A stretch of DNA of 64,000 nucleotides, taken from contig NZ_CP011125.1 of assembly GCF_000737325.1 (NCBI RefSeq), positions 1,984,001 to 2,048,000 of the forward strand. Reading direction: 5' to 3'. Below the pieces are notes generated by a model that saw only the letters and a program-made list of their open reading frames with translations, was not told where the DNA came from and made no database searches. This document shows, in pieces, positions 11,975-26,099 of the stretch; position 1 is the first letter of the stretch, and each line of letters starts with the position of its first letter. The DNA comes from Sandaracinus amylolyticus. GTDB taxonomy: Bacteria; Myxococcota_A; Polyangia; Polyangiales; Sandaracinaceae. The translations under genes were made by a program, and so were the position numbers.

Positions 11975-11978
11975 GCGC

Positions 11979-12536
11979 TCAGCGCGTCGGGAACTGCATC
12001 AGCAGCACCATGCGGGTGCCGCGGCGCAGGCCTTGATAGACGTGCGGCCACGTCGGGCTCATCCGCACGTAGTCGCCGGGGCCGAGATCGACCGGCGCGT
12101 CGATCGGCCCCACGCGCAGCCGGCCCGACGTGCACACGAGGTGCTCGACCACGCCGCGCGCGTGGGCCGGTGACTCCTGGCGCTTCTGCAGCACCTCGGC
12201 CTCGAACATCTCGCAGCGCATCCCGCCGCTCTCGAACGCGTCGATCAGCCGGCCCACCACCGCGTCGCCGCGCACCTTCGTGCCCTCGGTCGCGCGCACC
12301 ACCGTCATCGAGGGCGCGGGCGGATCCACCAGCTCCCCGAGCGACACCTCGAGGGGCACCGCGAGCGCCCAGAGCGTCTCGAGCGTCGGGTTCGCGCGGC
12401 CCGCCTCGAGCTCGGAGAGCGTGGCCTTGGCGATGCCCGAGCGGCGCGCGAGCTCGGACACGGTGAGCCCCTTGCTCTCGCGCGCGCGGCGCAGCGCGGC
12501 GCCGAGGTGGGCGCGGACGGCGTTCGGTTCCTTCAC
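11979..12536 (-). CDS. XRE-family regulator with C-terminal cupin domain
   Basis: A 185-residue regulator. Residues 10-65 are a Cro/C1 helix-turn-helix (LTVSELARRSGIAKATLSEL, then EAGRANPTLETLWALA); residues 105-180 are a cupin beta-barrel (EHLVCTSGRLRVG and LGPGDYVRMSPTWPHVY). Proteins of this layout bind a small molecule in the cupin and control a neighbouring enzyme or transporter. GTG is the start. It diverges from the GNAT gene across about 58 bp that holds two direct repeats, the probable operator. The ligand is unknown. Confidence 0.9.
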   Translation of the reverse strand: MKEPNAVRAHLGAALRRARESKGLTVSELARRSGIAKATLSELEAGRANPTLETLWALAVPLEVSLGELVDPPAPSMTVVRATEGTKVRGDAVVGRLIDAFESGGMRCEMFEAEVLQKRQESPAHARGVVEHLVCTSGRLRVGPIDAPVDLGPGDYVRMSPTWPHVYQGLRRGTRMVLLMQFPTR

Positions 12537-12545
12537 GCGTTCGTT

Positions 12546-12580
12546 ATACCGGACGATCGTTGCTCATACCGAACGGTCCA
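12546..12580. promoter_or_regulatory. Probable XRE operator: two direct repeats
   Basis: ATACCGGACG at 12546-12555 and ATACCGAACG at 12566-12575 are spaced 20 bp apart, two helical turns. They fill the gap between the divergent XRE-cupin and GNAT genes. On the minus strand the first repeat overlaps TATAAC, a possible -10 box for the regulator gene, which would fit autorepression. Confidence 0.5.
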
Positions 12581-12594
12581 GTAGACTGGAACGA

Positions 12595-13122
12595 GTGACC
12601 AGCATGCCGAACGACGTTCCGGTGCTCCGCGTGGCCCGCACCCGCGAGCTCGACGCGCTCCGAGCCCTCGTCGCGCGCTCGTGGCGCGCCCTCGCCGCGC
12701 GCAGCTACGCGCCCGACGTGATCGAGGCCGCGCTCGGCGTCGCGATCCGCGTCGACCCCGCGCTCGTCGAGGACGGCACGTACTTCGTCGCCGAGATCGA
12801 CGGCCAGCTCGCGGCGTGCGGCGGCTGGAGCGCGCGGGTGCCGACCGTGAAGGGCGCGGACCTCCCGACGCCTCGCGCGGAGGTGCGCGCGATGTTCGTC
12901 GCGTCGGAGCACACGCGGCGCGGGCTCGGTCGCGCGCTGCTCGAGCGCGCGGAGCGCGCGATCCGCGACGCGGGCTTCGACTCCGCGTACCTCGTCGCGA
13001 CCCACAGCGGCCTCGAGCTCTATCGCGCCGCGGGCTACGTCGAGCGCGGCGCGCACGTCGCGATGCTCCCCGGCGGCGTCGCGTTCCCGCTGACGCTGAT
13101 GTCGCGATCGCTCGCGCGCTGA
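12595..13122 (+). CDS. GNAT-family N-acetyltransferase
   Basis: A 175-residue GNAT enzyme, transferring an acetyl group from acetyl-CoA to an unknown amine. Beta-strand YFVAEIDGQLAACGGW, then VRAMFVASEHTRRGLGRALL with the acetyl-CoA-binding motif A (R-R-G-L-G-R), and the C-terminal LYRAAGYVERG typical of the fold. GTG 12595 and ATG 12604 are both possible starts; GGA at 12588-12590 favours the former. It faces the XRE-cupin gene, which probably regulates it. Confidence 0.88.
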   Translation: MTSMPNDVPVLRVARTRELDALRALVARSWRALAARSYAPDVIEAALGVAIRVDPALVEDGTYFVAEIDGQLAACGGWSARVPTVKGADLPTPRAEVRAMFVASEHTRRGLGRALLERAERAIRDAGFDSAYLVATHSGLELYRAAGYVERGAHVAMLPGGVAFPLTLMSRSLAR

Positions 13123-13133
13123 GCGCGAAGGAC

Positions 13134-13169
13134 GACGAAGGCCAGCACGTCACCGTCGTGGCCTTCGTC
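13134..13169. terminator. Hairpin between convergent genes
   Basis: An 11-bp perfect stem (GACGAAGGCCA / TGGCCTTCGTC) around a 14-nt loop sits between the converging GNAT gene and the next minus-strand gene, a good place for bidirectional termination. A T-run is lacking. Confidence 0.6.
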
Positions 13170-13188
13170 TCGTATCCCTGGCTGGCGC

Positions 13189-13959
13189 TCAGTCTGCGCT
13201 CGGCTCGACCGGCGCGGGCGTCACCGGTTCGATCGGCTCGACTCCGGGGGCTTCGGGCTCGCTCGGCGCGGCGCGTCCCTCCGCCCTCGCCTCGAGCGCG
13301 CGCACGCGCCCGAGGATCGGGGCCTCGTCGGTGCCGGTCGCGGCGAGCACCATCGCGAGCGCGTTGACGACGCGGATCCACTGGTTGCGCGCGCGCACCG
13401 TGCTCGAGCCGGTGATCGTCTCTGCGACCATCGCAGCGCGCGACTTCTCGTTCGCGTCGATGGTCGTCGCGACCTGCTGCAGCGCCCGATAGCGATCGAG
13501 CAGCGTGGTGCCGTCGTGGATCTTGAGCTTCGCGAGCAGTCGTTCGTCGCTCTCGGTCACGCGCCCCGCCCGGAGCTTCGCTTCACCCCCCTGCTCGGTC
13601 CACGAGAGGTTCACGACGGCGACGCCGGTGGGAAAGAGGCGATCGCGCAGCTGCGTGTACTTCGCGCGCTCGTCGTCGGCCTGCGCGAACCGACGCTCCG
13701 ACTCGAGGCGTCCGAACATCGCGTGAACGAGCTCGTCGTGGACGACGTCGTCGGCGTGGAGCTGCGCCGTGAGCTTTGCGACGGCGGCGTTGGTGATCGG
13801 CTGCGACTCGATCAGCCCCCGGTTGGCTGCCTCGATATCGGGGAGCAGCGCCGCGGCGGCGGGCACCGCCTCGATCGCGATGCGCTCGGGCGATCCGCGG
13901 CGGATCAGGTCGGCGCCCAGGGTCGCCATGTTCTCGGTGCTCAGTCTCTTCAGGGCCAT
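13189..13959 (-). CDS. Hypothetical helical protein
   Basis: A 256-residue cytosolic protein of unknown function. ATG 13959 follows GAGGAGA by about 9 nt and gives MALKRLSTENMATL. The sequence is mostly amphipathic helix (for example VHDELVHAMFGRLESERRF and LLDRYRALQQVATTIDANEK) and ends in a Pro/Glu-rich tail. There is no signal peptide or known motif. The upstream region is the 42-43-bp tandem array at 14030-14327, which begins about 70 bp before its start and may influence its expression. Confidence 0.65.
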   Translation of the reverse strand: MALKRLSTENMATLGADLIRRGSPERIAIEAVPAAAALLPDIEAANRGLIESQPITNAAVAKLTAQLHADDVVHDELVHAMFGRLESERRFAQADDERAKYTQLRDRLFPTGVAVVNLSWTEQGGEAKLRAGRVTESDERLLAKLKIHDGTTLLDRYRALQQVATTIDANEKSRAAMVAETITGSSTVRARNQWIRVVNALAMVLAATGTDEAPILGRVRALEARAEGRAAPSEPEAPGVEPIEPVTPAPVEPSAD

Positions 13960-14029
13960 CGTTCGTTTCTCCTCGGGATCTCGGTGGTCGGGAGCGCTCG
14001 CGAGACGTTCGCGACGCGCGGCCCTGGTC

Positions 14030-14327
14030 TCGACCACTCGCGACCGCCGTTGCGTGGTGTCGCGCGCTCACCGAACCACGGGGCGACACCTCGCGAGGTG
14101 GTCGCGACGCCTCCGAACCACGGCCGACCTCCTCGCGGAGGTGGTCTCGGGCGCTCCAGACCACGGCGAGGTGCCTCGTCGAGGTGGTCCGTCGCGCTCC
14201 GGACCACGGCGAGGCGCCTCGACGAGGTGGTCTCGGGCCATCGAACCACGAGCGACCACCGCGTCGAGGTGGTCGTCCATGGTTCGGTGGCCGGCGACCG
14301 CCTCGACGAGGTGGCCGCCGGTGGTTG
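14030..14327. repeat. Tandem array of 42-43-bp units with inner dyads
   Basis: About seven units follow one another with boundaries near 14030, 14073, 14115, 14158, 14201, 14243 and 14286. Each starts with a form of GAACCACGG and contains a short dyad such as CCTCGACGAGG followed by TGGTC. Unit lengths of 42 and 43 break every reading frame, so conservation is at the DNA or RNA level. The first and last units are degenerate. It separates the helical-protein gene from the pseudogene at the island boundary. No spacers of CRISPR type are present. Confidence 0.85.
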
Positions 14328-14494
14328 GGCGCGCGGGTCGCCACCCCGGGGCGGTGGCTTGGTATGGTCGCCTCTTCCTGCTCCGCCATCGTCGCCGCCT
14401 AGCCCCCGCACCGCGTCAGTCGTGGTCTTCGCTGCGTCCGATGAGCATCGCAGCAGGCCACGTGGTCGGAAGGAGCACGATGCGGAACGTGCGG

Positions 14495-14842
14495 GCGACG
14501 ATCAGTGCGACGAGTACTCGCAGGCCGCGCTCGACTACCACGTCGCGCTGTACGACCTGCGCACCGGCGCGTTGCGCGAGGCGATGAGCGCGTCGTCGAC
14601 GCCGCGATGACGATCGACGTGCTGATCCTGGACAGGATCGAAGTCGTCCGCAGCGCGCGTGGCATCGGCTCGGCCTGGCAGCGGCCGATGCGGACATCGA
14701 GGCGTTCGGCCGGGGACGAGGGCTGGTCGCGTGCAAGCCGTTCCCGCTTCAATTCGAGGGAGTCGGCGACGAGCTCGAGCAGCTCTCACCGGCGGCGAGG
14801 GCGCAACGTGACAGCATCGTCGCGCCGCGACGCGCAAGCTGA
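14495..14842 (+). pseudogene. Frameshifted GNAT-type acetyltransferase remnant
   Basis: Protein-like sequence continues through three frames. Frame one gives DEYSQAALDYHVALYDL to about 14580. A second frame gives DVLILDRIEVVRSARGIG to about 14665. A third frame gives LGLAAADADIEAFG and VACKPFPLQFEGV, ending at TGA 14840-14842. Joined, RGIG-LGLA makes a GNAT motif A (RGxGLG), and the order of blocks matches small GNAT-like proteins. At least two frameshifts are needed, so the gene is broken unless the sequence has errors. The original start is not identifiable. Confidence 0.65.
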
Positions 14843-14986
14843 CTCGGTAATGGAGTCAGCTCGGATTCGAGCGCCTTCCGAGATCGCCCTATTTGATCTT
14901 GAACCTCGCGTACGAGCGCCCGTCGCGTCATGACCTCGGGCTGGAGTGAGCCTCCTGCGGCTCGAAGTGGACACCTCGGGGATGAA

Positions 14987-15001
14987 CGCTCAGCCTGAGC
15001 G
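14987..15001. promoter_or_regulatory. Short dyad upstream of island cassette
   Basis: CGCTCA-GCC-TGAGCG, a perfect 6-bp dyad, ends 12 bp before the ATG at 15014 and just before its GGAG ribosome site. It could be an operator or a translational hairpin. The 170 bp between the pseudogene and this gene hold nothing else recognisable. Confidence 0.35.
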
Positions 15002-15013
15002 GTTGGAGCCCCG

Positions 15014-16153
15014 ATGAGCCGCGTTCCGTTCAGCACCTTCGTGTTCCGAGGCAAGCGCTTCGAGGACGCTGCCATGCCCCTAGAAGTCCTCGTGGAGCTC
15101 GAGACGTATCGCGAGCTCGTTTTGGCCGTCGCCATGTCGCTCTTCCGGCAGGAGAACCCGGACCGCGTCCGTCTGCCCAAGAACTTCGCCGAGTCACTCA
15201 GGCTCGTGCTCGGGAGTCAGGAGCGCGGGAGCACCGTTCCGAATGTCGAGCGAGTGCTGCGGCCGCGCAACGAGATGCTGCCGGGCGTCGAGAGCCCCCT
15301 CGATCTGTTCGACCGCGCTGCCGACATCGTGCGTGTCGCGTTCGAGCAGGCAGCGCACGATTCGCGGCCGACGGTCGTGTCGGCGGCGTTGATCCCGCGA
15401 ATGCTGGCGTTCGGAAAGACGCTGCGGGACGACGAGTCCGTCATCATCGCCCCGCCTGGAGGGCGCGAAGGTCCCGTCGTCGACAGGAAGCTCCGCCGGC
15501 GGCTCCAGCAGGAAGTCGGCGGCCCCTACGAAGAGGCGGTGGAGCTCGTCGGACGCGTTCGCGCCGCCGATCGCGATCGCGAGGGCTTCCGGCTGCGCAC
15601 GCTCGATGGTCGTGCAGTGCACGTCGTGTCGACCGGGCCACTGTTCGAGACGGCGCTGGATTCACTCGCCGAGGAGAGCGTCGTCCGCGTGCGCGGCACG
15701 GGCGTGTACGACCCGTCGGGCGCCTTGCTCCGGGTGATCGGAGCGGCGGATGTCACGCTCGCCGAAGAGGGCGACGAGGGGTGCTCGATTTCGATCGTGG
15801 AACAGATCTCGCGCCTGAGGGAGCTTGGCGACGGCTGGCTCGACGGGGAAGGGAAGGCCCTCGATCCCACGGCGCTCGATCGCGCGGGCGGGTTGCTGCG
15901 AGCGCTCGTCGAGCCGGACGGGCTTCCCACTCCGTACCTTTATCCCAAGCCCGAGTGCGACCTGCAGGCGGAGTGGTCGCTCGCCGGTGTGGAGGTCGCC
16001 GTCGTCTTCGATCTCGTGGCGTGGACGGCGCATTGCCTGCTCACTTCGCTCGACAGTGACGACTTCGAAGAGCTGGAGATCGATCTGAAGCAGCCTGGTG
16101 CCGAGCTTCGTCTCGGACGTCAGCTCGAACGCTGGCTGCGAGGCGAGCGGTGA
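15014..16153 (+). CDS. Uncharacterised protein, first gene of island cassette
   Basis: A 379-residue soluble protein without signal peptide. The N-terminal 80 residues (MPLEVLVELETYRELVLAVA, then GSTVPNVERV) form one helical domain; residues about 180-240 (LRTLDGRAVHVVSTG, VRVRGTGVYDPSG) look like a small beta domain; the C-terminal 110 residues include WLDGEGKALDP, PTPYLYPKPE and EWSLAGVEV, blocks I associate with an uncharacterised family found in accessory DNA. GGAG at 15005-15008 supports ATG 15014. Its stop overlaps the next start as GTGA, so the two products probably work together. GC content is visibly lower than in neighbouring genes, which suggests transfer. Confidence 0.75.
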   Translation: MSRVPFSTFVFRGKRFEDAAMPLEVLVELETYRELVLAVAMSLFRQENPDRVRLPKNFAESLRLVLGSQERGSTVPNVERVLRPRNEMLPGVESPLDLFDRAADIVRVAFEQAAHDSRPTVVSAALIPRMLAFGKTLRDDESVIIAPPGGREGPVVDRKLRRRLQQEVGGPYEEAVELVGRVRAADRDREGFRLRTLDGRAVHVVSTGPLFETALDSLAEESVVRVRGTGVYDPSGALLRVIGAADVTLAEEGDEGCSISIVEQISRLRELGDGWLDGEGKALDPTALDRAGGLLRALVEPDGLPTPYLYPKPECDLQAEWSLAGVEVAVVFDLVAWTAHCLLTSLDSDDFEELEIDLKQPGAELRLGRQLERWLRGER

Positions 16154-16782
16154 GCGCGCGACTCGAGGATCCCGAGGAGCTTCTCTTTCGTCAGGTCCCA
16201 TCGGCGTTTCTCGTCGACGGACGCCTCTCGAGCCAAGCGTTCAACCCGAGCCGCAAGGACGAGCAGAGACTGTCGGTCAGTCGTGGCTCGCTGACCACCG
16301 CGCAGGCTGCGTACGACCACCACACGCTGCGTCTTGGGCATCAATCGCTCGGCACGTGGGCCGTGACAGTTGGGGAGGTCGTTCAGGTCGGGTTGCACGC
16401 GACGGGCGATCCCGTGATGAGCCCGCCAGCGCCCACCCCCGACCCGGCCCACGCCTTCATCGACTTCACGGGGCTGTCGCTTGGGCAGACGAAGAACAAG
16501 GCGACGCGGCTCGCGGAGCTGGCTCGTGCGCGTGGTCGGTTGTGGCCGCCGTCCGGAGGTGAAACGCCTGCGCGCGACGACGCCTCGAACGAGCGCGATG
16601 CAGACGGGAGTCCTCGATCCGAGCCGAGCGCTCAGGCTTTCGCGCTGGCCGCGCTGGAATCGGAGCGAGCGGAGCTGGAACGGTTGATCGCCGCGTGTGC
16701 GGCCGATGACGTGTCGCGCCTCGGGCTCGAAGCCCGGCTGGACGAGGTCAGGCGCGCGCTCGAACGCGCCGCCGCGCCGTAG
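16150..16782 (+). CDS. Uncharacterised protein, second gene of island cassette
   Basis: A 210-residue protein translated from GTG 16150 inside the previous stop. The first 110 residues carry LLFRQVPSAFLVDGRLSSQA, then KDEQRLSVSRGSLTTAQAAY and VTVGEVVQVGL, with HAFIDFTGL after a Pro-rich strand. These blocks resemble an uncharacterised family commonly found paired with a partner gene. The last 60 residues (LAALESERAELERLIAAC) form a coiled coil that could mediate oligomerisation. No catalytic motif is evident. The linkage to an HsdR relic and a Doc-like pair hints at a defence or mobile context. Confidence 0.75.
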   Translation: MSARLEDPEELLFRQVPSAFLVDGRLSSQAFNPSRKDEQRLSVSRGSLTTAQAAYDHHTLRLGHQSLGTWAVTVGEVVQVGLHATGDPVMSPPAPTPDPAHAFIDFTGLSLGQTKNKATRLAELARARGRLWPPSGGETPARDDASNERDADGSPRSEPSAQAFALAALESERAELERLIAACAADDVSRLGLEARLDEVRRALERAAAP

Positions 16783-17050
16783 GAACGCTGAGCCACGCTC
16801 GGACCGGCTCGCTGATGCGCTCGACGGCAGGAGCTGTCGCACTCGCATACGGTGGCGATCCACACCGAGGCGGCTCGAGGATGCAATCGAGCGGGACTCC
16901 TCGAATGCAGCCGGGTCGACGCGACGCGGGCGGACGAGGTGCGCGCGCCGTTGGAGCGGCTGCCGCGCCGCGAGATCCTTTGGACCTGGATGGCGAGGTC
17001 GATCTCCACCGCAATCGCCTGTGCATGTATCGGCGAGACGCACATCGCGC
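16783..17050. other. Gene-poor stretch in accessory island
   Basis: No convincing gene is seen in these 268 bp. Short open frames in both strands have no plausible start signal, domain or codon bias. The stretch may be decayed sequence upstream of the HsdR-like fragment. Confidence 0.5.
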
Positions 17051-17254
17051 TCGTACTCGGATAGCGCTTACGCGAACATCTTCGACAATTTCGCCCTGCC
17101 GACCAAGGACAAGATCGAAGGGCTGATGATCGATCGCATGGACCGGAGCGCGAGCATCGTGACGAATTTCCTCAACGAAGACGACTTCAAGCGATATCTG
17201 TCCGAGTATCTCGCGCGCAGGATCTACGAGGACTTGCGCGGGACCGGCAGTTGA
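17051..17254 (+). pseudogene. C-terminal fragment of type I restriction HsdR-like protein
   Basis: An open frame of 67 residues without a start codon ends at TGA 17254. It reads NIFDNFALPTKDKIEGLMID, then RMDRSASIVTNFLNEDDF and EYLARRIYEDLRG, matching my memory of the extreme C-terminus of the motor/nuclease subunit (HsdR) of some type I restriction enzymes. All catalytic regions are missing, so it can only be a relic of a deleted defence locus or an insertion scar. The family match should be confirmed by a profile search. Confidence 0.55.
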
Positions 17255-17300
17255 ACGACCGCGGGCCTCGCGCCAAGCGCGAGCGCCGTGAGGGGGACGG

Positions 17301-17588
17301 ATGAGCGCGCGAGTGATGAGCGTCAGTGCCATGATCGACGACGTCGGCGACGACGACGTTTCGCTGCGACTCGGCGCCAAGCTGCACACCCTCGCCGCGA
17401 CCCCGGCGCTCGTCGAGCGCGCCCGCGCGCTCCGCGCGCAGCCGGTGCGCGTGACGTTCCTCGACGTCGATCCGCCGCGCCTCTTGCGCGTCGACCCCAT
17501 CGGCGCGCCGCTCGGTGGCACGCCCGAGCAGCGCTGGGAGGCGATCTCGACGCGCTGGGCCGACACCTTCGCGGAGCTCGCGAAGTGA
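17301..17588 (+). CDS. Small protein coupled to Doc-like gene, possible antitoxin
   Basis: A 95-residue protein. ATG 17301 follows GGGGGA by about 4 nt. Position and size suit an antitoxin: it precedes a Doc/Fic-like gene and its stop overlaps that gene's start (GTGA at 17585-17588). However, the sequence (SLRLGAKLHTLAATPALVER, then TFLDVDPPRLLRVDP) does not look like Phd or another known antitoxin, and no DNA-binding fold is clear. The role is inferred only from arrangement. Confidence 0.6.
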   Translation: MSARVMSVSAMIDDVGDDDVSLRLGAKLHTLAATPALVERARALRAQPVRVTFLDVDPPRLLRVDPIGAPLGGTPEQRWEAISTRWADTFAELAK

Positions 17589-18001
17589 ACGCCGACGAGC
17601 TGATCGCGCCGGCGCGCGTCTGGGAGCTCCACGCGACGATCATCGCGCGCTGGGGCGGTCTCCCCGGCGAGCGCGAGCGCGGATGCGTCGACGCGAAGAT
17701 CGACGGCGCGCTCACCGCCGCGCTCTACGCGTGCGACGAGGGCGAGGAGCCCGACGTCCTGAGCGTCGCGGTGCACCTCCTCGTGTACTTCGCGCAGAGC
17801 CAGTGCTTCGTCGACGGCTCGAAGCGCGTCGCGTGGGCCGCGATGAACGAGCAGCTCCACGCGGCCGGGCTCCAGATCGTCGCGACGCCGCAGGAGGCCG
17901 CCGAGCTCGTGCTCGCGGTCTCGAACAAGCGGATCGGCGCGAGCGACGTGCTCGCCTGGCTCGCCGCGCCCGATCGTCTCGTCGCCTGGGATCCGAGCTG
18001 A
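17585..18001 (+). CDS. Doc/Fic-like protein with altered Fic motif
   Basis: A 138-residue protein of death-on-curing type. Residues 14-43 (ELHATIIARWGGLPGERERG, then VDAKIDGAL) match the Doc N-terminal region, and residues 62-95 match the Fic core. The core reads QCFVDGSKRVAWAAM (Q73 to K80, R81 and on), where active Doc/Fic proteins have HxFxD(A/G)NKR. The catalytic His is Gln and the Asn is Ser, so classical nucleotidyl or phosphate transfer to a target is unlikely; it may be an inactive or repurposed member. Translation is coupled to the preceding small gene. Confidence 0.75.
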   Translation: MNADELIAPARVWELHATIIARWGGLPGERERGCVDAKIDGALTAALYACDEGEEPDVLSVAVHLLVYFAQSQCFVDGSKRVAWAAMNEQLHAAGLQIVATPQEAAELVLAVSNKRIGASDVLAWLAAPDRLVAWDPS

Positions 18002-18002
18002 C

Positions 18003-18032
18003 GCGCCGCACCGATCGTTCTCGGTGCGGCGC
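18003..18032. terminator. Strong bidirectional hairpin
   Basis: A perfect 12-bp stem (GCGCCGCACCGA / TCGGTGCGGCGC) with a 6-nt TCGTTC loop lies between the Doc-like stop and the convergent hydrolase stop. No T-run follows on either side. Confidence 0.7.
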
Positions 18033-18041
18033 ATCCGACGC

Positions 18042-18920
18042 TCACGCCGTCGTCACGACCGCGCGCGGGATGCGCGCGAGCATCCACTTCACGACGTCGT
18101 CGAGCACCTGCTCGCGGCCGATGTCGTTGAGCAGGTCGTGGTAGTGCCCCTCGTAGACCTTGAGCGTCTTGTCGCCCGAGCCCCCCATCTGCTCGAAGCG
18201 CCGGCTGCCGCTCGGCTTGGTCACCCGATCCGCGCTGCCGTGCAGGATGAGGACGGGCAGCGTGATCTTCGCGAAGTCGCCCTTCTTGAGGCGCTCGTCG
18301 GCGCGCACCAGCTCCGCGACGCTGTGCGCGGGGTAGCCCTGGCGATCGATCAGCGGATCGCTCTTCATGCGCGCGACGAACGCGGGATCGCGCGAGAACG
18401 CCTCGTCCTCGAGCTTCAGGAGGTGGAGGGCCGGCGCGATGCGATCGAGGCCCTTGATGACCGTGAGCGCGACGTCGGGCGCGGGGATCTCGTGCGCGAA
18501 GCTCTCGCAGACGAACCCTGCGAGCTCGCGTTGGTGCTCGAGCACGTAGCCGCACGAGATGACGCCCCCGGCGCTGTGTCCGAGCACGAAGATCGGCAGT
18601 CCCGGCTCGCGCCCGCGCGCCATCTGCACCAGCGCGTCGACGTCCTCGAGGTACTTCGAGAACGACTCGACCCAGAGCCGCGCGCCCTCGGAGCGACCGT
18701 GGCCGCGCAGGTCGAGCGCGTACGCGGCGATGCCGCGCTTCGCGAGCTCGATGCCGGCCCACTCGTAGAGCCCGCCGTGCGCCTTGAAGCCGTGCACCAG
18801 CGCGACGACGGCGCGCGCCGGGCCGGAGGGCCGCCACGCGCGCGTGAAGATGTTCGTGCCGTCGTTGCTGCGGATCATCTCGTCCCTCATGCGCACGGCG
18901 GGCTGCATCGCAGGTGCCAT
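18042..18920 (-). CDS. Alpha/beta hydrolase, monoacylglycerol-lipase-like
   Basis: A 292-residue serine hydrolase. VVALVHGFKAHGGLYEW forms the oxyanion region, VLGHSAGG holds the nucleophile Ser116, HGSADRVT supplies the acid Asp, and YEGHYHDLLND supplies the His. The sequence and length fit the monoglyceride lipase/lysophospholipase group that releases fatty acids from glycerolipids. There is no signal peptide, so it is cytosolic. It lies 24 bp after the transglycosylase gene on the same strand and is probably cotranscribed. Substrate specificity cannot be fixed. Confidence 0.88.
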   Translation of the reverse strand: MAPAMQPAVRMRDEMIRSNDGTNIFTRAWRPSGPARAVVALVHGFKAHGGLYEWAGIELAKRGIAAYALDLRGHGRSEGARLWVESFSKYLEDVDALVQMARGREPGLPIFVLGHSAGGVISCGYVLEHQRELAGFVCESFAHEIPAPDVALTVIKGLDRIAPALHLLKLEDEAFSRDPAFVARMKSDPLIDRQGYPAHSVAELVRADERLKKGDFAKITLPVLILHGSADRVTKPSGSRRFEQMGGSGDKTLKVYEGHYHDLLNDIGREQVLDDVVKWMLARIPRAVVTTA

Positions 18921-18944
18921 GCGCGAGGCGCGAGGCGCATCGCG

Positions 18945-21098
18945 TCAGCGCGGGGCGACGCGCTCGGGCAGCTCGATCGCGGGCCAGCCGCGCGACGGAT
19001 CGCGCAGGTAGAGGTAGTGCGCGTAGTGCGTGGTGACGCGGCGCACGTAGTTGCGCGTCTGATCGAACGGAATCTCCTCGACGAAGAGATCCAATTCCAC
19101 ACCGCGCGCTCCGGCCCGCTCGAGCCACTCCTGCACGCGATGGCCGCCCGCGTTGAACGCGGCGAAGCAGAGCGGCACGCCGTGCGCGTCGACCAGGCCG
19201 CGCACGTACGCGGCGCCGAGCCGCGCGTTCCACTCGGGCACGAAGAGCATCTCGCGCTCGAAGCGCACGCCGAGCCCGCGCGCGACGCGCGACGCGGTCG
19301 ACGGCAACATCTGCAAGAGGCCGATCGCGTCGGCGTACGAGAGCGCGTCGGGATCGTAGGCGCTCTCCTGCCGCATGATGCCCCAGAGGAGCTCGGGCTC
19401 GAGGCGCTGCGCGCGCGCCGCTTCGCTCACCGCGCTCTCGAACGCGCGCGGGTACGCGGCCTCCCACGCCCATCGCTCGCCGCGCAGCGCCGGGCGCGCG
19501 AGCGACTCGTGCTGCGCGGTGAGTCGGTACGCGCGGTTCGCATCACCGATGCGCACGAACGCGTCGGCGACCTGACGCAGATCGCCCTGCGCGCGCAGCG
19601 CGCGCTCTTCGGAGCGCAGGCGCTCGCGCGCATCGCGATCGAGGCCGAGCGCGAGCAGGAGCGACACCTCCGCGGGCAGCGCGAGGGCGGTGGTCTCGGT
19701 GGCGTCGCCGCGCGCCTCGCGCGCGAAGGGCGAGCCGGGCTCTTCGCCCAGCGCGATCAGCCGCTGTCGCGCGAGCAGCGCGTACCAGTGGAGCGGCTCG
19801 ACGTGCAGGGCCTGTCGGTACGCCGCGATCGCGCCTGCTCGATCACCGCCCTCGGCGAGCGCTCGCGCGCGCCAGTACGTCCCGCGGCCACGCACGAGCA
19901 CGTCGGCGTCCATCCGCGCGTACGCCTCGAAGCGCGCCGCCGCGCGCAGGTACGCGCGGCGATCCCGCGCGCGCCGGAACGCGTCGATCGCGAGCTGCCA
20001 CGCGCCTTCGCGCGCGAGGCGCGGAGCGCGCGCGGCGCGGGGGCCCGACACGAAGCGCTCCATCGCGCGGGCGCCGGTGCGACGACCGAGGCGCAGCTCG
20101 AGCCACGCCGCGAGGTACTCGGCCTCCGCGGCTTGATCGCTCTGCGGGGCGCGACGCACCAGCGCGCGATACGCGCGGATCGCGCCGGCGTCGTCGCCGG
20201 CGCGCGATCGCGCGCGCGCGGCGTGGAACGCGTCGGCGACCGCGGTGGGGCCGGGCAGCGCGGCCGCCTGGGTGAGCACGTCGGCGGCCTCGGCGTAGGC
20301 GTGGCGCGACTGGAAGAGCGCCATGCCCCGCACGTGGAGGAGACGCGCGGCGAGCGCGCGATCGCGCGGGCGCGCGATGCCCTCGAGCGCGCGCACCGCG
20401 TCGTCGTGCAGCAGCGCGCGCGAGAGCCGCTCGGCGCGATCGACACGCTCCTCGACGCTCGGCTCGATCGTGCTCCCGGTGATCGCGACGTACGCCTCTT
20501 CGGCGCGCGGCGCGTCGGGGTGCTCGGGCCGCTCGAGCCACAGCGCGCGCAGCGTGTCGCGCGCACGATCGCGATGGCCGGCGCGGAGCTGTGCCTCGGC
20601 GAGCGCCATGCGCAGCGCGAACGCGTCGACGTCGCGCTCGTCGGCGCTCGCCTCGCGCGCGAGCTGTGCTTCGGCGCCCGCGAGATCACCACGCACCAGC
20701 GCGCACTCGGCGCGCACGGCGCGCTCGATCGCATCGGGCCGCTCGAGCGCCGCGAGCAGCGCCTCGGCCTCGTCACAGCGCCCACGGCGCGCGAGCAGCC
20801 GGGCCCGGCGGCCGCGCGCATCGCGCAGGATCGCCGGAGGCAGCGTGTCTCCGCCGGTGAGCGCATCGATCGCGGCGTCGAGCGCGCCGGTGCGCTCGGC
20901 GAGCCGGCCCTCGAGGTAGCGCACCGCGGGATGCGCGCGCGTCTCCTCGGGCAGGGCTCGCAGCGCGGCGAGCGCGCCCGCCTCGTCGCCGCGCCGCACC
21001 ATCGCGGCAATCGGGCGGATCGCGTCGGGCACCTCCTGCGCGCGCGCGGCGCTCGTCACCGAGAGCACGACGAGGATCGTGAGCACGCACGCGCGCAT
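18945..21098 (-). CDS. Soluble lytic murein transglycosylase (Slt70-like)
   Basis: A 717-residue periplasmic enzyme that cleaves peptidoglycan glycan strands to 1,6-anhydro products. ATG 21098 yields a clean signal peptide (VLTILVVLSVTSAARAQ). About 500 residues of alpha-helical repeats (many A-x-R/L-A hairpins of TPR/superhelix type) precede a C-terminal SLT domain with catalytic Glu578 in GIMRQESAYDP, then GLLQMLPSTA and FAAFNAGGHRVQEW. The layout matches E. coli Slt70. The downstream hydrolase may share its transcript. Wall turnover fits the elongation genes elsewhere in the window. Confidence 0.9.
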   Translation of the reverse strand: MRACVLTILVVLSVTSAARAQEVPDAIRPIAAMVRRGDEAGALAALRALPEETRAHPAVRYLEGRLAERTGALDAAIDALTGGDTLPPAILRDARGRRARLLARRGRCDEAEALLAALERPDAIERAVRAECALVRGDLAGAEAQLAREASADERDVDAFALRMALAEAQLRAGHRDRARDTLRALWLERPEHPDAPRAEEAYVAITGSTIEPSVEERVDRAERLSRALLHDDAVRALEGIARPRDRALAARLLHVRGMALFQSRHAYAEAADVLTQAAALPGPTAVADAFHAARARSRAGDDAGAIRAYRALVRRAPQSDQAAEAEYLAAWLELRLGRRTGARAMERFVSGPRAARAPRLAREGAWQLAIDAFRRARDRRAYLRAAARFEAYARMDADVLVRGRGTYWRARALAEGGDRAGAIAAYRQALHVEPLHWYALLARQRLIALGEEPGSPFAREARGDATETTALALPAEVSLLLALGLDRDARERLRSEERALRAQGDLRQVADAFVRIGDANRAYRLTAQHESLARPALRGERWAWEAAYPRAFESAVSEAARAQRLEPELLWGIMRQESAYDPDALSYADAIGLLQMLPSTASRVARGLGVRFEREMLFVPEWNARLGAAYVRGLVDAHGVPLCFAAFNAGGHRVQEWLERAGARGVELDLFVEEIPFDQTRNYVRRVTTHYAHYLYLRDPSRGWPAIELPERVAPR

Positions 21099-21205
21099 CG
21101 CGCCTCGAACGCGACCGCGCGGCGGCGCGATTCCCCGATGGTATGAGCTCCAACGATCCACGATCCGAGGCGCGCATCGTGATCGAGGCCCCGCCCGGTC
21201 GTCAC

Positions 21206-24929: not shown

Positions 24930-25440
24930 GCCGAGGAACACCACGTCGCTGCGCACGAGGTGCGACTCGACTCGCGCGCCGTGCCTGCTTCGGAGTTTTT
25001 GAGGAAAGCAGGAGGGTTAGGAAGGCCACGTCGCTGTGCGCGTGGTGGGACTCGAATGGCGCGTCGTGCCCACTCCTGAGTTTTTTGAGGAAAGCAGGAG
25101 GGTTAGGAAGACCACGTCGCCGTGCGCGTGGTGGGACTCGAGTCGCGCGCAGCGCTCGAACGAAGAACCTCGTTCGAGTAAATCGGTGCACGGTGAGTCG
25201 ACAGGAAGACGCTTCGACGTGGTCTTCCTAACCCTCCTACCTTCCTTGGATGTCCGGAATGCGTGGAGGCAATTCGCGTCGCGCTGAGTCGACAGGAAGA
25301 CGCTTCGCCGTGGTCTTCCTAACCCTCCTGCTTTCCTTAGATGTCCGGAATCCGTGGAGGCATTCGTCGCTCGGTGAGTCGACAGGAAGACCCGTCGACG
25401 TGGTGTTCCGAAACCCGCTTGCCCTCCTCAGAGGGTCGGA
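24930..25440. repeat. Inverted array of 85-91-bp repeats centred on a hairpin
   Basis: Left side: about two and a half direct copies with period 85-86 bp (landmark CCACGTCG at 24941, 25026, 25112). Right side: three copies in the opposite orientation with period 90-91 bp (landmark GAGTCGACAGGAAGAC at 25195, 25286, 25376). Both sides share a 29-nt core that starts AGGAAAGCAGGAGGG and ends AAGACCACG, found at 25088-25116 and reversed at 25310-25338. A perfect 9-bp hairpin (CTCGAACGA / TCGTTCGAG, 25155-25178) marks the centre. The periods are mostly not multiples of three, so it is not a protein repeat. It fills the gap between two convergent genes. Confidence 0.85.
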
Positions 25441-25443
25441 TGC

Positions 25444-25980
25444 TCAGCGGTTCGTGGCGGCGCGTTCGAGGTTCGCGAGGCCTTCGTCGAAGTCCTTGCC
25501 GATCATCGCATCCATGTCGGCGAAGACCGAGAACAGCTTGCCCATGAACGTGTTCTCGCCCTCCATCGTCCACGAGACCTCGGTGCCTTCGCCGCTCGGC
25601 GTGAGCGTGAAGACCGTGGTGTTCGTCGCAGGGAAGGGCTTGATGAACTGGAGCTTCAGCGCGACGCGCTCGCTCGGCTGGCTCTCGACGATCTCCATGC
25701 GGCCTTCGCCCGCTTTGTTGTTTCCCTTCCACGCGTAGGTCGCGCCGACGCCGCGCTCCGAGCCGCCGTACGTGCGCTGCAGCGCGGGATCGAGCTTCTC
25801 CCACGGGGACCACTCGGTCCATCGATGCAGGTCTTCGAGCTTCGGGAAGATCACGTCGGGCTTCGCCGCGATCAGCTTCTTGCGTTCGATCCGGAACGAC
25901 GACGGTTTGCGCGACGCGAGCGCGACGACGACCGCCGCGCCGAGCCCGATCACACCCAACGCACCATAGAGGAGAGGCAT
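25444..25980 (-). CDS. Membrane-anchored SRPBCC (polyketide cyclase-like) protein
   Basis: A 178-residue protein: an N-terminal membrane helix (LLYGALGVIGLGAAVVVALA) followed by a START/SRPBCC fold (IAAKPDVIFPKLEDLHRW, WSPWEKLDPALQRTYGG, then FTLTPSGEGTEVSWTMEG). Such domains bind hydrophobic ligands in a deep pocket; the ligand is not predictable. ATG 25980 is chosen because the helix begins there; ATG 25995 is an alternative and neither has a clear ribosome site. It diverges from the DJ-1-like gene. Confidence 0.82.
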   Translation of the reverse strand: MPLLYGALGVIGLGAAVVVALASRKPSSFRIERKKLIAAKPDVIFPKLEDLHRWTEWSPWEKLDPALQRTYGGSERGVGATYAWKGNNKAGEGRMEIVESQPSERVALKLQFIKPFPATNTTVFTLTPSGEGTEVSWTMEGENTFMGKLFSVFADMDAMIGKDFDEGLANLERAATNR

Positions 25981-26099
25981 GCGCGCAGGGTGCATAGGCG
26001 CTGCGCGCGTTGTCGAGAGTCCACGCGCATGGAGCTGGCTCGACGTCATCGCACCGTTGGCTCGCTGCGCGCGATCACGCGCGTGCTAGCGATGCGCGC

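What the first reader, a model, noticed from the sequence alone, without database searches (positions are those of the whole stretch)
15014..16782. Translationally coupled two-gene cassette of unknown function in transferred DNA
Two soluble proteins, coupled by GTGA, with blocks that I recall recurring as a pair in unrelated bacteria (PYLYPKPE/EWSLAGVEV in the first; FLVDGRLSSQA and HAFIDFTGL in the second). Lower GC than the surroundings, next to an HsdR relic and a Doc-like pair. This is the best candidate here for an undescribed two-component defence, toxin or mobile-element system. No catalytic motif is visible, so the mechanism is open.
Basis: partly seen in the sequence, partly recalled or inferred. 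Interest (0 to 1): 0.62.

Follow-up and report, generated by a model that had tools for sequence, protein, structure and literature searches.

The report
Mobile two-gene phage-defence candidate cassette
This overlapping gene pair belongs to a widespread but untested family of suspected anti-virus systems that repeatedly travels inside DNA-cutting defence operons and dormant viruses, and its small second protein is predicted to fold like enzymes that attach a piece of NAD to their targets.

Summary
Gene A (15014-16153, 379 aa) and gene B (16150-16782, 210 aa) overlap by GTGA. Both match PADLOC's catalogued but mechanistically open phage-defence candidate PDC-M32 (A 7e-68, B 2.8e-37), so the family is not undescribed.

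All 93 B relatives fetched have an A-type gene directly upstream; 66 of 93 can use the same 4-nt overlap. Contexts point to defence. In 26 of 92 loci a type I restriction gene lies within 3.5 kb, and in 14 the pair sits between hsdM and hsdS/hsdR. In 10 of 13 viral contigs it follows a CI-like repressor.

In the window it lies in a ~3-kb insertion absent from a sister species, beside a genuine HsdR C-terminal relic. The Doc pair is native, not part of it.

B's predicted core matches ADP-ribosyltransferase folds (Tpt1/KptA, Z up to 8.6), with ten invariant residues, but no sequence profile supports this. A's C-terminal domain always accompanies B; its N-terminus is swapped. I propose an A-restrained, ART-like effector guarding restriction as PrrC does. 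Fold and mechanism are inferred.

The parts
15014..16153 (+). Gene A, 379 aa, PDC-M32A: N-terminal domain (about residues 1-80), linker, OB-fold domain (about 170-255), C-terminal domain (about 260-379)
   Evidence: PADLOC PDC-M32A 7e-68; phrog_30544; AlphaFold pLDDT 91.7; OB fold Z 7.5-10.6 over 170-255
15791..16150 (+). C-terminal domain of A (GW..G..P..EW), the only part of A found in all 93 loci with B
   Evidence: (93 of 93 loci); alignment A11
16150..16782 (+). Gene B, 210 aa, PDC-M32B: core 1-135 (16150-16554) with ART-like predicted fold, plus a helical hairpin tail (about 156-210)
   Evidence: PADLOC PDC-M32B 2.8e-37; phrog_31579; AlphaFold pLDDT 88.6; Tpt1/KptA Z up to 8.6; invariant residues
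16150..16153 (+). GTGA overlap: start codon of B inside the end of A
   Evidence: sequence; same 4-nt geometry available in 66 of 93 loci
17024..17251 (+). Relic of the C-terminal end of a type I restriction subunit HsdR
   Evidence: tblastn with HsdR of L037 (7e-9), L072, L048, L086; whole-genome search 1.5e-5, 39%
14354..17350 (.). Insertion of about 3.0 kb (A, B, HsdR relic) replaced by about 0.33 kb in a sister species of the same genus
   Evidence: blastn against G002: 11977-14353 at 92%, 17351-18005 at 89%, 18047-21186 at 89%

Best explanation
A and B form a mobile two-gene anti-phage module, a member of the candidate family PDC-M32. Most likely B is the effector: a small enzyme with an ADP-ribosyltransferase-like fold that, when released, uses NAD to modify or deplete something essential and stops the infected cell (abortive infection). 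A is its partner and restraint: the C-terminal domain binds B, and the rest (N-terminal domain and a nucleic-acid-type OB fold here; other domains elsewhere) sets when B is let go. When embedded between hsdM and hsdS it would act as a second line that fires if the restriction enzyme is inhibited, as PrrC does; downstream of a prophage repressor it would exclude other phages. In the window the pair is intact by sequence but its restriction operon has decayed to an HsdR tail; one HsdR elsewhere in the genome could serve in trans. Shown: pairing, overlap, contexts, insertion, conserved residues. Inferred: fold-based enzyme class, restraint by A, trigger, phage defence itself.
For: PDC-M32A/B matches. 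Pairing 93/93; survey of 377 genomes not selected by B: C-terminal A domain in 13, B in 10, adjacent in 9. 4-nt overlap possible in 66/93. Type I restriction gene within 3.5 kb in 26/92, embedded in 14; PADLOC/Pfam names agree against a far-gene control with single hits. CI-like repressor directly upstream in 10/13 viral loci. Fusion of the C-terminal domain to a ResIII helicase protein with a DNA methylase next door (L097). B core: all 12 structure matches to it are Tpt1/KptA (11) or AvrPphF ORF2 (1); R14, S28, Q29, F31, P33, K36, D37, L41, S42, H101 in 83/83 homologues. Precedents: PrrC silenced by type I R-M and RloC beside an hsdR relic (PMC2610378); DarTG2, an ART toxin-antitoxin pair, inside a type I R-M operon (PMC12255303).
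Against: No sequence-profile support for an ART: hhalign of B against Tpt1/KptA, RES and DarT is at background and 48 of 60 shuffles reach or beat the local Tpt1 score. Foldseek alone found nothing below E 0.3 in PDB or 0.04 in viral models. Z 8.6 is only slightly above the background the tool quotes (7-8). No toxicity, neutralisation or phage data. 66 of 92 loci have no type I gene within 3.5 kb, and L081/L095 lie between HEAT-repeat proteins with no defence link seen. C-terminal A domains without a detected B exist (4 of 13 genomes).
Confidence: 0.45

Rival explanations
1. The pair is a defence module, but B is not an ART; it is a regulatory or targeting subunit (for example a nucleic-acid or nucleotide binder) and A, with its OB fold, does the work.
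For: No sequence link of B to any enzyme family; A carries an OB fold of the SSB/RPA kind; the helicase protein in L097 is fused to A's domain, not to B.
Against: B is the most conserved part (ten residues invariant in 83 homologues, mostly polar) while A's N-terminus is replaceable; every structure match to the B core is an ART-fold protein.
Confidence: 0.25
2. A-B is an accessory part of type I restriction itself (assembly, target or activity control), not an independent system.
For: 14 of 92 loci have it inside the hsd operon, often overlapping hsdM and hsdS; HsdR relic in the window.
Against: 66 of 92 loci lack a type I gene within 3.5 kb; 10 of 13 viral contigs carry it behind a repressor instead; plasmid copies stand next to other genes.
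Confidence: 0.1
3. A plain toxin-antitoxin addiction module that stabilises mobile elements, with defence at most a side effect.
For: Overlapping two-gene layout, a plasmid copy among other toxin-antitoxin genes, AF2212-like domain (antitoxin type, recalled) fused to the C-terminal domain in L081 and L095.
Against: Embedding inside restriction operons and the position behind phage repressors are typical of defence cargo; rarity and patchiness within the phylum.
Confidence: 0.15

Closest known systems
PDC-M32 (PADLOC-DB phage defence candidate)
   Same: Both proteins match both family models, adjacent and in the same order. Also reported by PADLOC in Sinorhizobium prophages (PMC12429752, passages).
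   Different: PADLOC gives no mechanism. The window's B carries a helical C-terminal tail that is absent from nearly all relatives fetched.
Tpt1/KptA RNA 2'-phosphotransferase (ART superfamily)
   Same: Predicted fold of the B core matches the NAD lobe.
   Different: No RNA lobe, no HGT motif, no detectable sequence similarity.
DarTG2 embedded in a type I restriction operon
   Same: Two-gene module with a known ART toxin inside a type I R-M operon (PMC12255303, passages).
   Different: DarTG2 sits between hsdS and hsdR; A-B sits between hsdM and hsdS. No DarT match in A or B.
PrrC / RloC anticodon nucleases
   Same: Genetically linked to type I R-M; RloC also known beside an hsdR C-terminal relic (PMC2610378, abstract and passages).
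   Different: PrrC/RloC are single ABC-ATPase nucleases; A and B match no ATPase or nuclease family.
Lambda RexAB (by position only)
   Same: Two genes behind the prophage repressor (position of RexAB recalled; A-B position).
   Different: No sequence comparison with RexAB was made.

Membership tests
PDC-M32 | Gene matching PDC-M32A models | tested here: met
   7e-68, residues 1-367
PDC-M32 | Adjacent gene matching PDC-M32B models | tested here: met
   2.8e-37, residues 8-132
PDC-M32 | Protection against phage | not testable with these tools
   No assay found in the library; only one paper names PDC-M32
ADP-ribosyltransferase superfamily | ART fold | tested here: inconclusive
   All 12 core matches are ART-fold entries, best Z 8.6, 95 residues, 2.8 A; Foldseek weak
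ADP-ribosyltransferase superfamily | Sequence-profile similarity to a known ART family (Tpt1/KptA, RES, DarT) | tested here: not met
   hhalign at background; no ART family of Pfam for any of 84 B proteins
ADP-ribosyltransferase superfamily | NAD-binding catalytic residues | tested here: inconclusive
   R14 and S42 83/83, E76 75/83 (plus 6 Asp), placed on strands 1, 2 and just after strand 3; no coordinates available to check the pocket
Tpt1/KptA | N-terminal RNA lobe | tested here: not met
   B core is about 130 aa and aligns only to residues 83-182 of Tpt1/KptA
Tpt1/KptA | HGT motif of the NAD lobe | tested here: not met
   Invariant in 10 KptA proteins; no H-G-T among the conserved columns of B, whose first strand has RQ, R14 83/83
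Type II toxin-antitoxin | Two co-translated genes, partner first | tested here: met
   66 of 93 with a possible 4-nt overlap
Type II toxin-antitoxin | Toxicity of one product, neutralised by the other | not testable with these tools
   needs expression experiments
DarTG | DarT domain and macrodomain antitoxin | tested here: not met
   no such Pfam match in A or B
PrrC/RloC | ABC ATPase with nuclease triad | tested here: not met
   no such Pfam match in A or B above chance

The most novel reading that the evidence does not exclude
The C-terminal domain of A plus B is a portable ART toxin-restraint cartridge that evolution plugs onto many different sensors (OB-fold protein, TPR-like repeats, AF2212-like antitoxin domain, zinc-ribbon-like stretch, and even a restriction helicase protein), and in hsdM-A-B-hsdS operons it guards the restriction enzyme itself, an ART counterpart of PrrC.
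Probability: 0.35. Interest if true: 0.7.

Novelty: new member of a known kind. Interest (0 to 1): 0.5.

Why it matters
In the sources seen here PDC-M32 is only a name in a defence database. A concrete, testable mechanism (ART-like effector, swappable sensor, two recurring niches inside type I restriction operons and behind prophage repressors) would make it possible to test whether phages that disable restriction trigger a second, NAD-dependent line of defence. The fusion of the same domain to a restriction helicase protein suggests a physical link between the two lines.

Tried and rejected
Pfam and NCBIfam named neither protein; weak matches above E 0.01 were treated as chance. No match to P0001 in viral contigs with the single protein or in the phage record collection, and none of the Kosakonia copy's DNA in 5,426 E. 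coli genomes. Profile searches of PDB sequences with A and B gave nothing, nor did the HsdR relic. hhalign of B against Tpt1/KptA, RES and DarT, with shuffles for Tpt1, gave nothing. Repeats at the ends of the insertion: only short imperfect ones, no convincing target duplication. No tRNA at the insertion; one tRNA-Met at 21089-21176. The preprint by Payne et al. 2024 on embedded defences was seen only as a reference-list entry; that PDC candidates come from it is recalled. That AvrPphF ORF2 has an ART fold is recalled; that the effector HopF2 is an ADP-ribosyltransferase is in an abstract (PMC4263708).

Limits of the counts: the 93 loci were chosen by a B motif, hold near-duplicates (for example L037/L038, L080/L104, L113/L114) and are the best 80 of 122 genome matches plus 13 viral ones. 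L038 was dropped before the count; L038 and L070 before the neighbour sets; 2 of 142 immediate neighbours were left out for length. The far-gene control was a sample of 148 of the 247 far genes. The hsd profiles were built from neighbour clusters of the same loci. Only 9 of the 13 viral loci were given to the phage-family scan; the CI profile was then run on all. Architecture tally, my reading: 75 of 93 full-length A, 14 with only the C-terminal part or little more (L049 holds a run of N), 3 cut by a contig end (L022, L067, L090), 1 unresolved (L028).

Full report
What is there. Two ORFs at 15014-16153 (A, 379 aa) and 16150-16782 (B, 210 aa) overlap as GTGA. Codon-position GC supports coding and GC3 (0.82, 0.79) is lower than in 7 neighbouring genes (0.887-0.962). 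PADLOC names them PDC-M32A (7e-68) and PDC-M32B (2.8e-37); PHROGs has both as families of unknown function; Pfam and NCBIfam have neither. The only paper in the library that names PDC-M32 reports PADLOC hits in Sinorhizobium prophages (listing and passages).

It is a local insertion. The genome holds one copy of A. None of the 9 other genomes of the same genus or family has A, and 3 of the 86 other genomes of the order in that call do. In the sister species G002 the flanks are colinear at 88-92% DNA identity, but window 14354-17350 (2997 bp) is replaced by about 0.33 kb. That it was gained here rather than lost there is inferred from its low GC3 and its absence in the rest of the family. The Doc-like pair (17301-18001) aligns at 89% from base 17351 and so belongs to the native background. 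Inside the insertion, 17027-17236 encodes the end of an HsdR: it is one of only two matches of a 1059-aa HsdR in the genome (1.5e-5, 39%), and it was first found with HsdR proteins from loci where the pair lies next to or inside hsd genes. One HsdR with an N-terminal HSDR_N domain in a 1245-aa open frame lies elsewhere in the genome.

The pair is a unit. A scan of one genome for each of 84,980 species with a B alignment gave 122 relatives (80 kept) and of viral contigs 13. In all 93 loci an A-type ORF lies directly upstream on the same strand; in 66 a start codon for B gives the same 4-nt overlap. In an independent survey of 377 genomes of the phylum, not selected by B, the C-terminal A domain occurs in 13 and B in 10; in 9 they are adjacent. 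Hosts in the listing include Planctomycetes, Acidobacteria, Chloroflexi, Cyanobium, Bacteroidota, Actinomycetes, Magnetococcales, Spirochaetia and Gammaproteobacteria.

A is modular, B is not. Most loci have the full three-part A, but in 14 only the C-terminal domain or little more remains, alone or joined to something else: AF2212-like (L081, L095), TPR/PPR-like repeats below Pfam's cut-offs (L064), OB only (L051, L061, by alignment), a short cysteine-rich stretch resembling a zinc ribbon (L113, weak), and a 1253-aa ResIII helicase protein with a weak TnsA-like nuclease match (L097), whose upstream neighbour is a DNA methylase. The C-terminal domain with B is thus the constant core, found in 93 of 93 loci.

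Where it lives. Of 140 immediate neighbours of the 78 loci in the set, 10 carry N6_Mtase and 11 Methylase_S, and single PADLOC models hit up to 12 type I specificity and 11 type I methylase proteins; among 148 genes more than 6 kb away, the type I models that appear in the 25 families shown hit one protein each. With profiles built from the neighbour clusters, 26 of 92 loci have a type I gene within 3.5 kb and 14 have hsdM upstream and hsdS or hsdR downstream on the same strand. L025 has BrxL upstream. In 10 of 13 viral contigs, and in the Pseudomonas bharatica locus L080, a CI-like repressor lies upstream on the same strand, next to A or within about 650 bp, a place where temperate phages often keep genes expressed in the lysogen (recalled; papers on prophage-encoded defence seen in the listing).

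What B looks like. AlphaFold models are confident (A 91.7, B 88.6). In the second-look alignment, all 12 rows that align to the core of B are ART-fold proteins: 11 Tpt1/KptA entries (Z 6.0-8.6, 91-99 residues, 2.6-3.2 A) and AvrPphF ORF2 (Z 6.2); the other rows match only the helical tail. The order of strands and helices looks the same as in the NAD lobe of Tpt1, as I read the KptA alignment by eye. Ten residues, R14 S28 Q29 F31 P33 K36 D37 L41 S42 H101, are identical in all 83 homologues and E76 is E in 75, D in 6 and Q in 2, as expected of an active site. Against this, no sequence profile connects B with Tpt1, RES or DarT, shuffled Tpt1 profiles score as well, and Foldseek alone was weak. 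B is not a Tpt1: it lacks the RNA lobe and the HGT motif that PMC6333775 describes (passages). For A only the OB fold is assigned.

How it probably works. Putting this together, A's C-terminal domain most likely holds B in check, the rest of A senses trouble, and B acts on the infected cell through NAD. The insertion into hsd operons recalls PrrC, which a type I enzyme silences and a phage anti-restriction factor activates, and RloC, known beside an hsdR C-terminal relic much as here (PMC2610378). DarTG2 shows that an ART toxin-antitoxin pair can live in such an operon (PMC12255303). Each step after 'pair in defence contexts' is inference. I put about 0.97 on PDC-M32 membership, 0.75 on anti-phage function, 0.6 on an ART-like fold for B and 0.45 on the full mechanism.

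Noticed in passing
17301-18001: Native Doc/Fic-type toxin (PF02661) with a 95-aa partner that matches no Pfam, NCBIfam or PHROGs family at E 1 or better (one weak PADLOC Cas5d match at 0.013); shared with the sister species.
   Followed up: partly
14052-14353: Internally repetitive GC-rich stretch at the left edge of the insertion, also repetitive in the sister species (several self-similar matches); possible insertion-prone site.
   Followed up: partly
L097:6249-10007: 1253-aa ResIII helicase protein (weak TnsA-like nuclease match) fused to the C-terminal domain of A, followed by B and preceded by an N6_N4_Mtase gene: a type III-like restriction system merged with the module.
   Followed up: partly
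L021 (reverse strand, open frame of 709 aa): A protein with only the N-terminal domain of A and other C-terminal parts, so that this domain also travels separately.
   Followed up: no
L081, L095: In two planctomycete contigs the module lies between HEAT-repeat proteins (the L095 one also DUF7133), with an AF2212-like N-terminus on A; no defence gene was seen next to it.
   Followed up: partly
L020:1327-1845 and downstream ORF: A divergent pair (173-aa A-like protein, B-like ORF recognised by eye) below the B profile threshold, suggesting a wider superfamily.
   Followed up: no
25001-26000: Lowest-GC kilobase of the window (63.2%), not examined.
   Followed up: no
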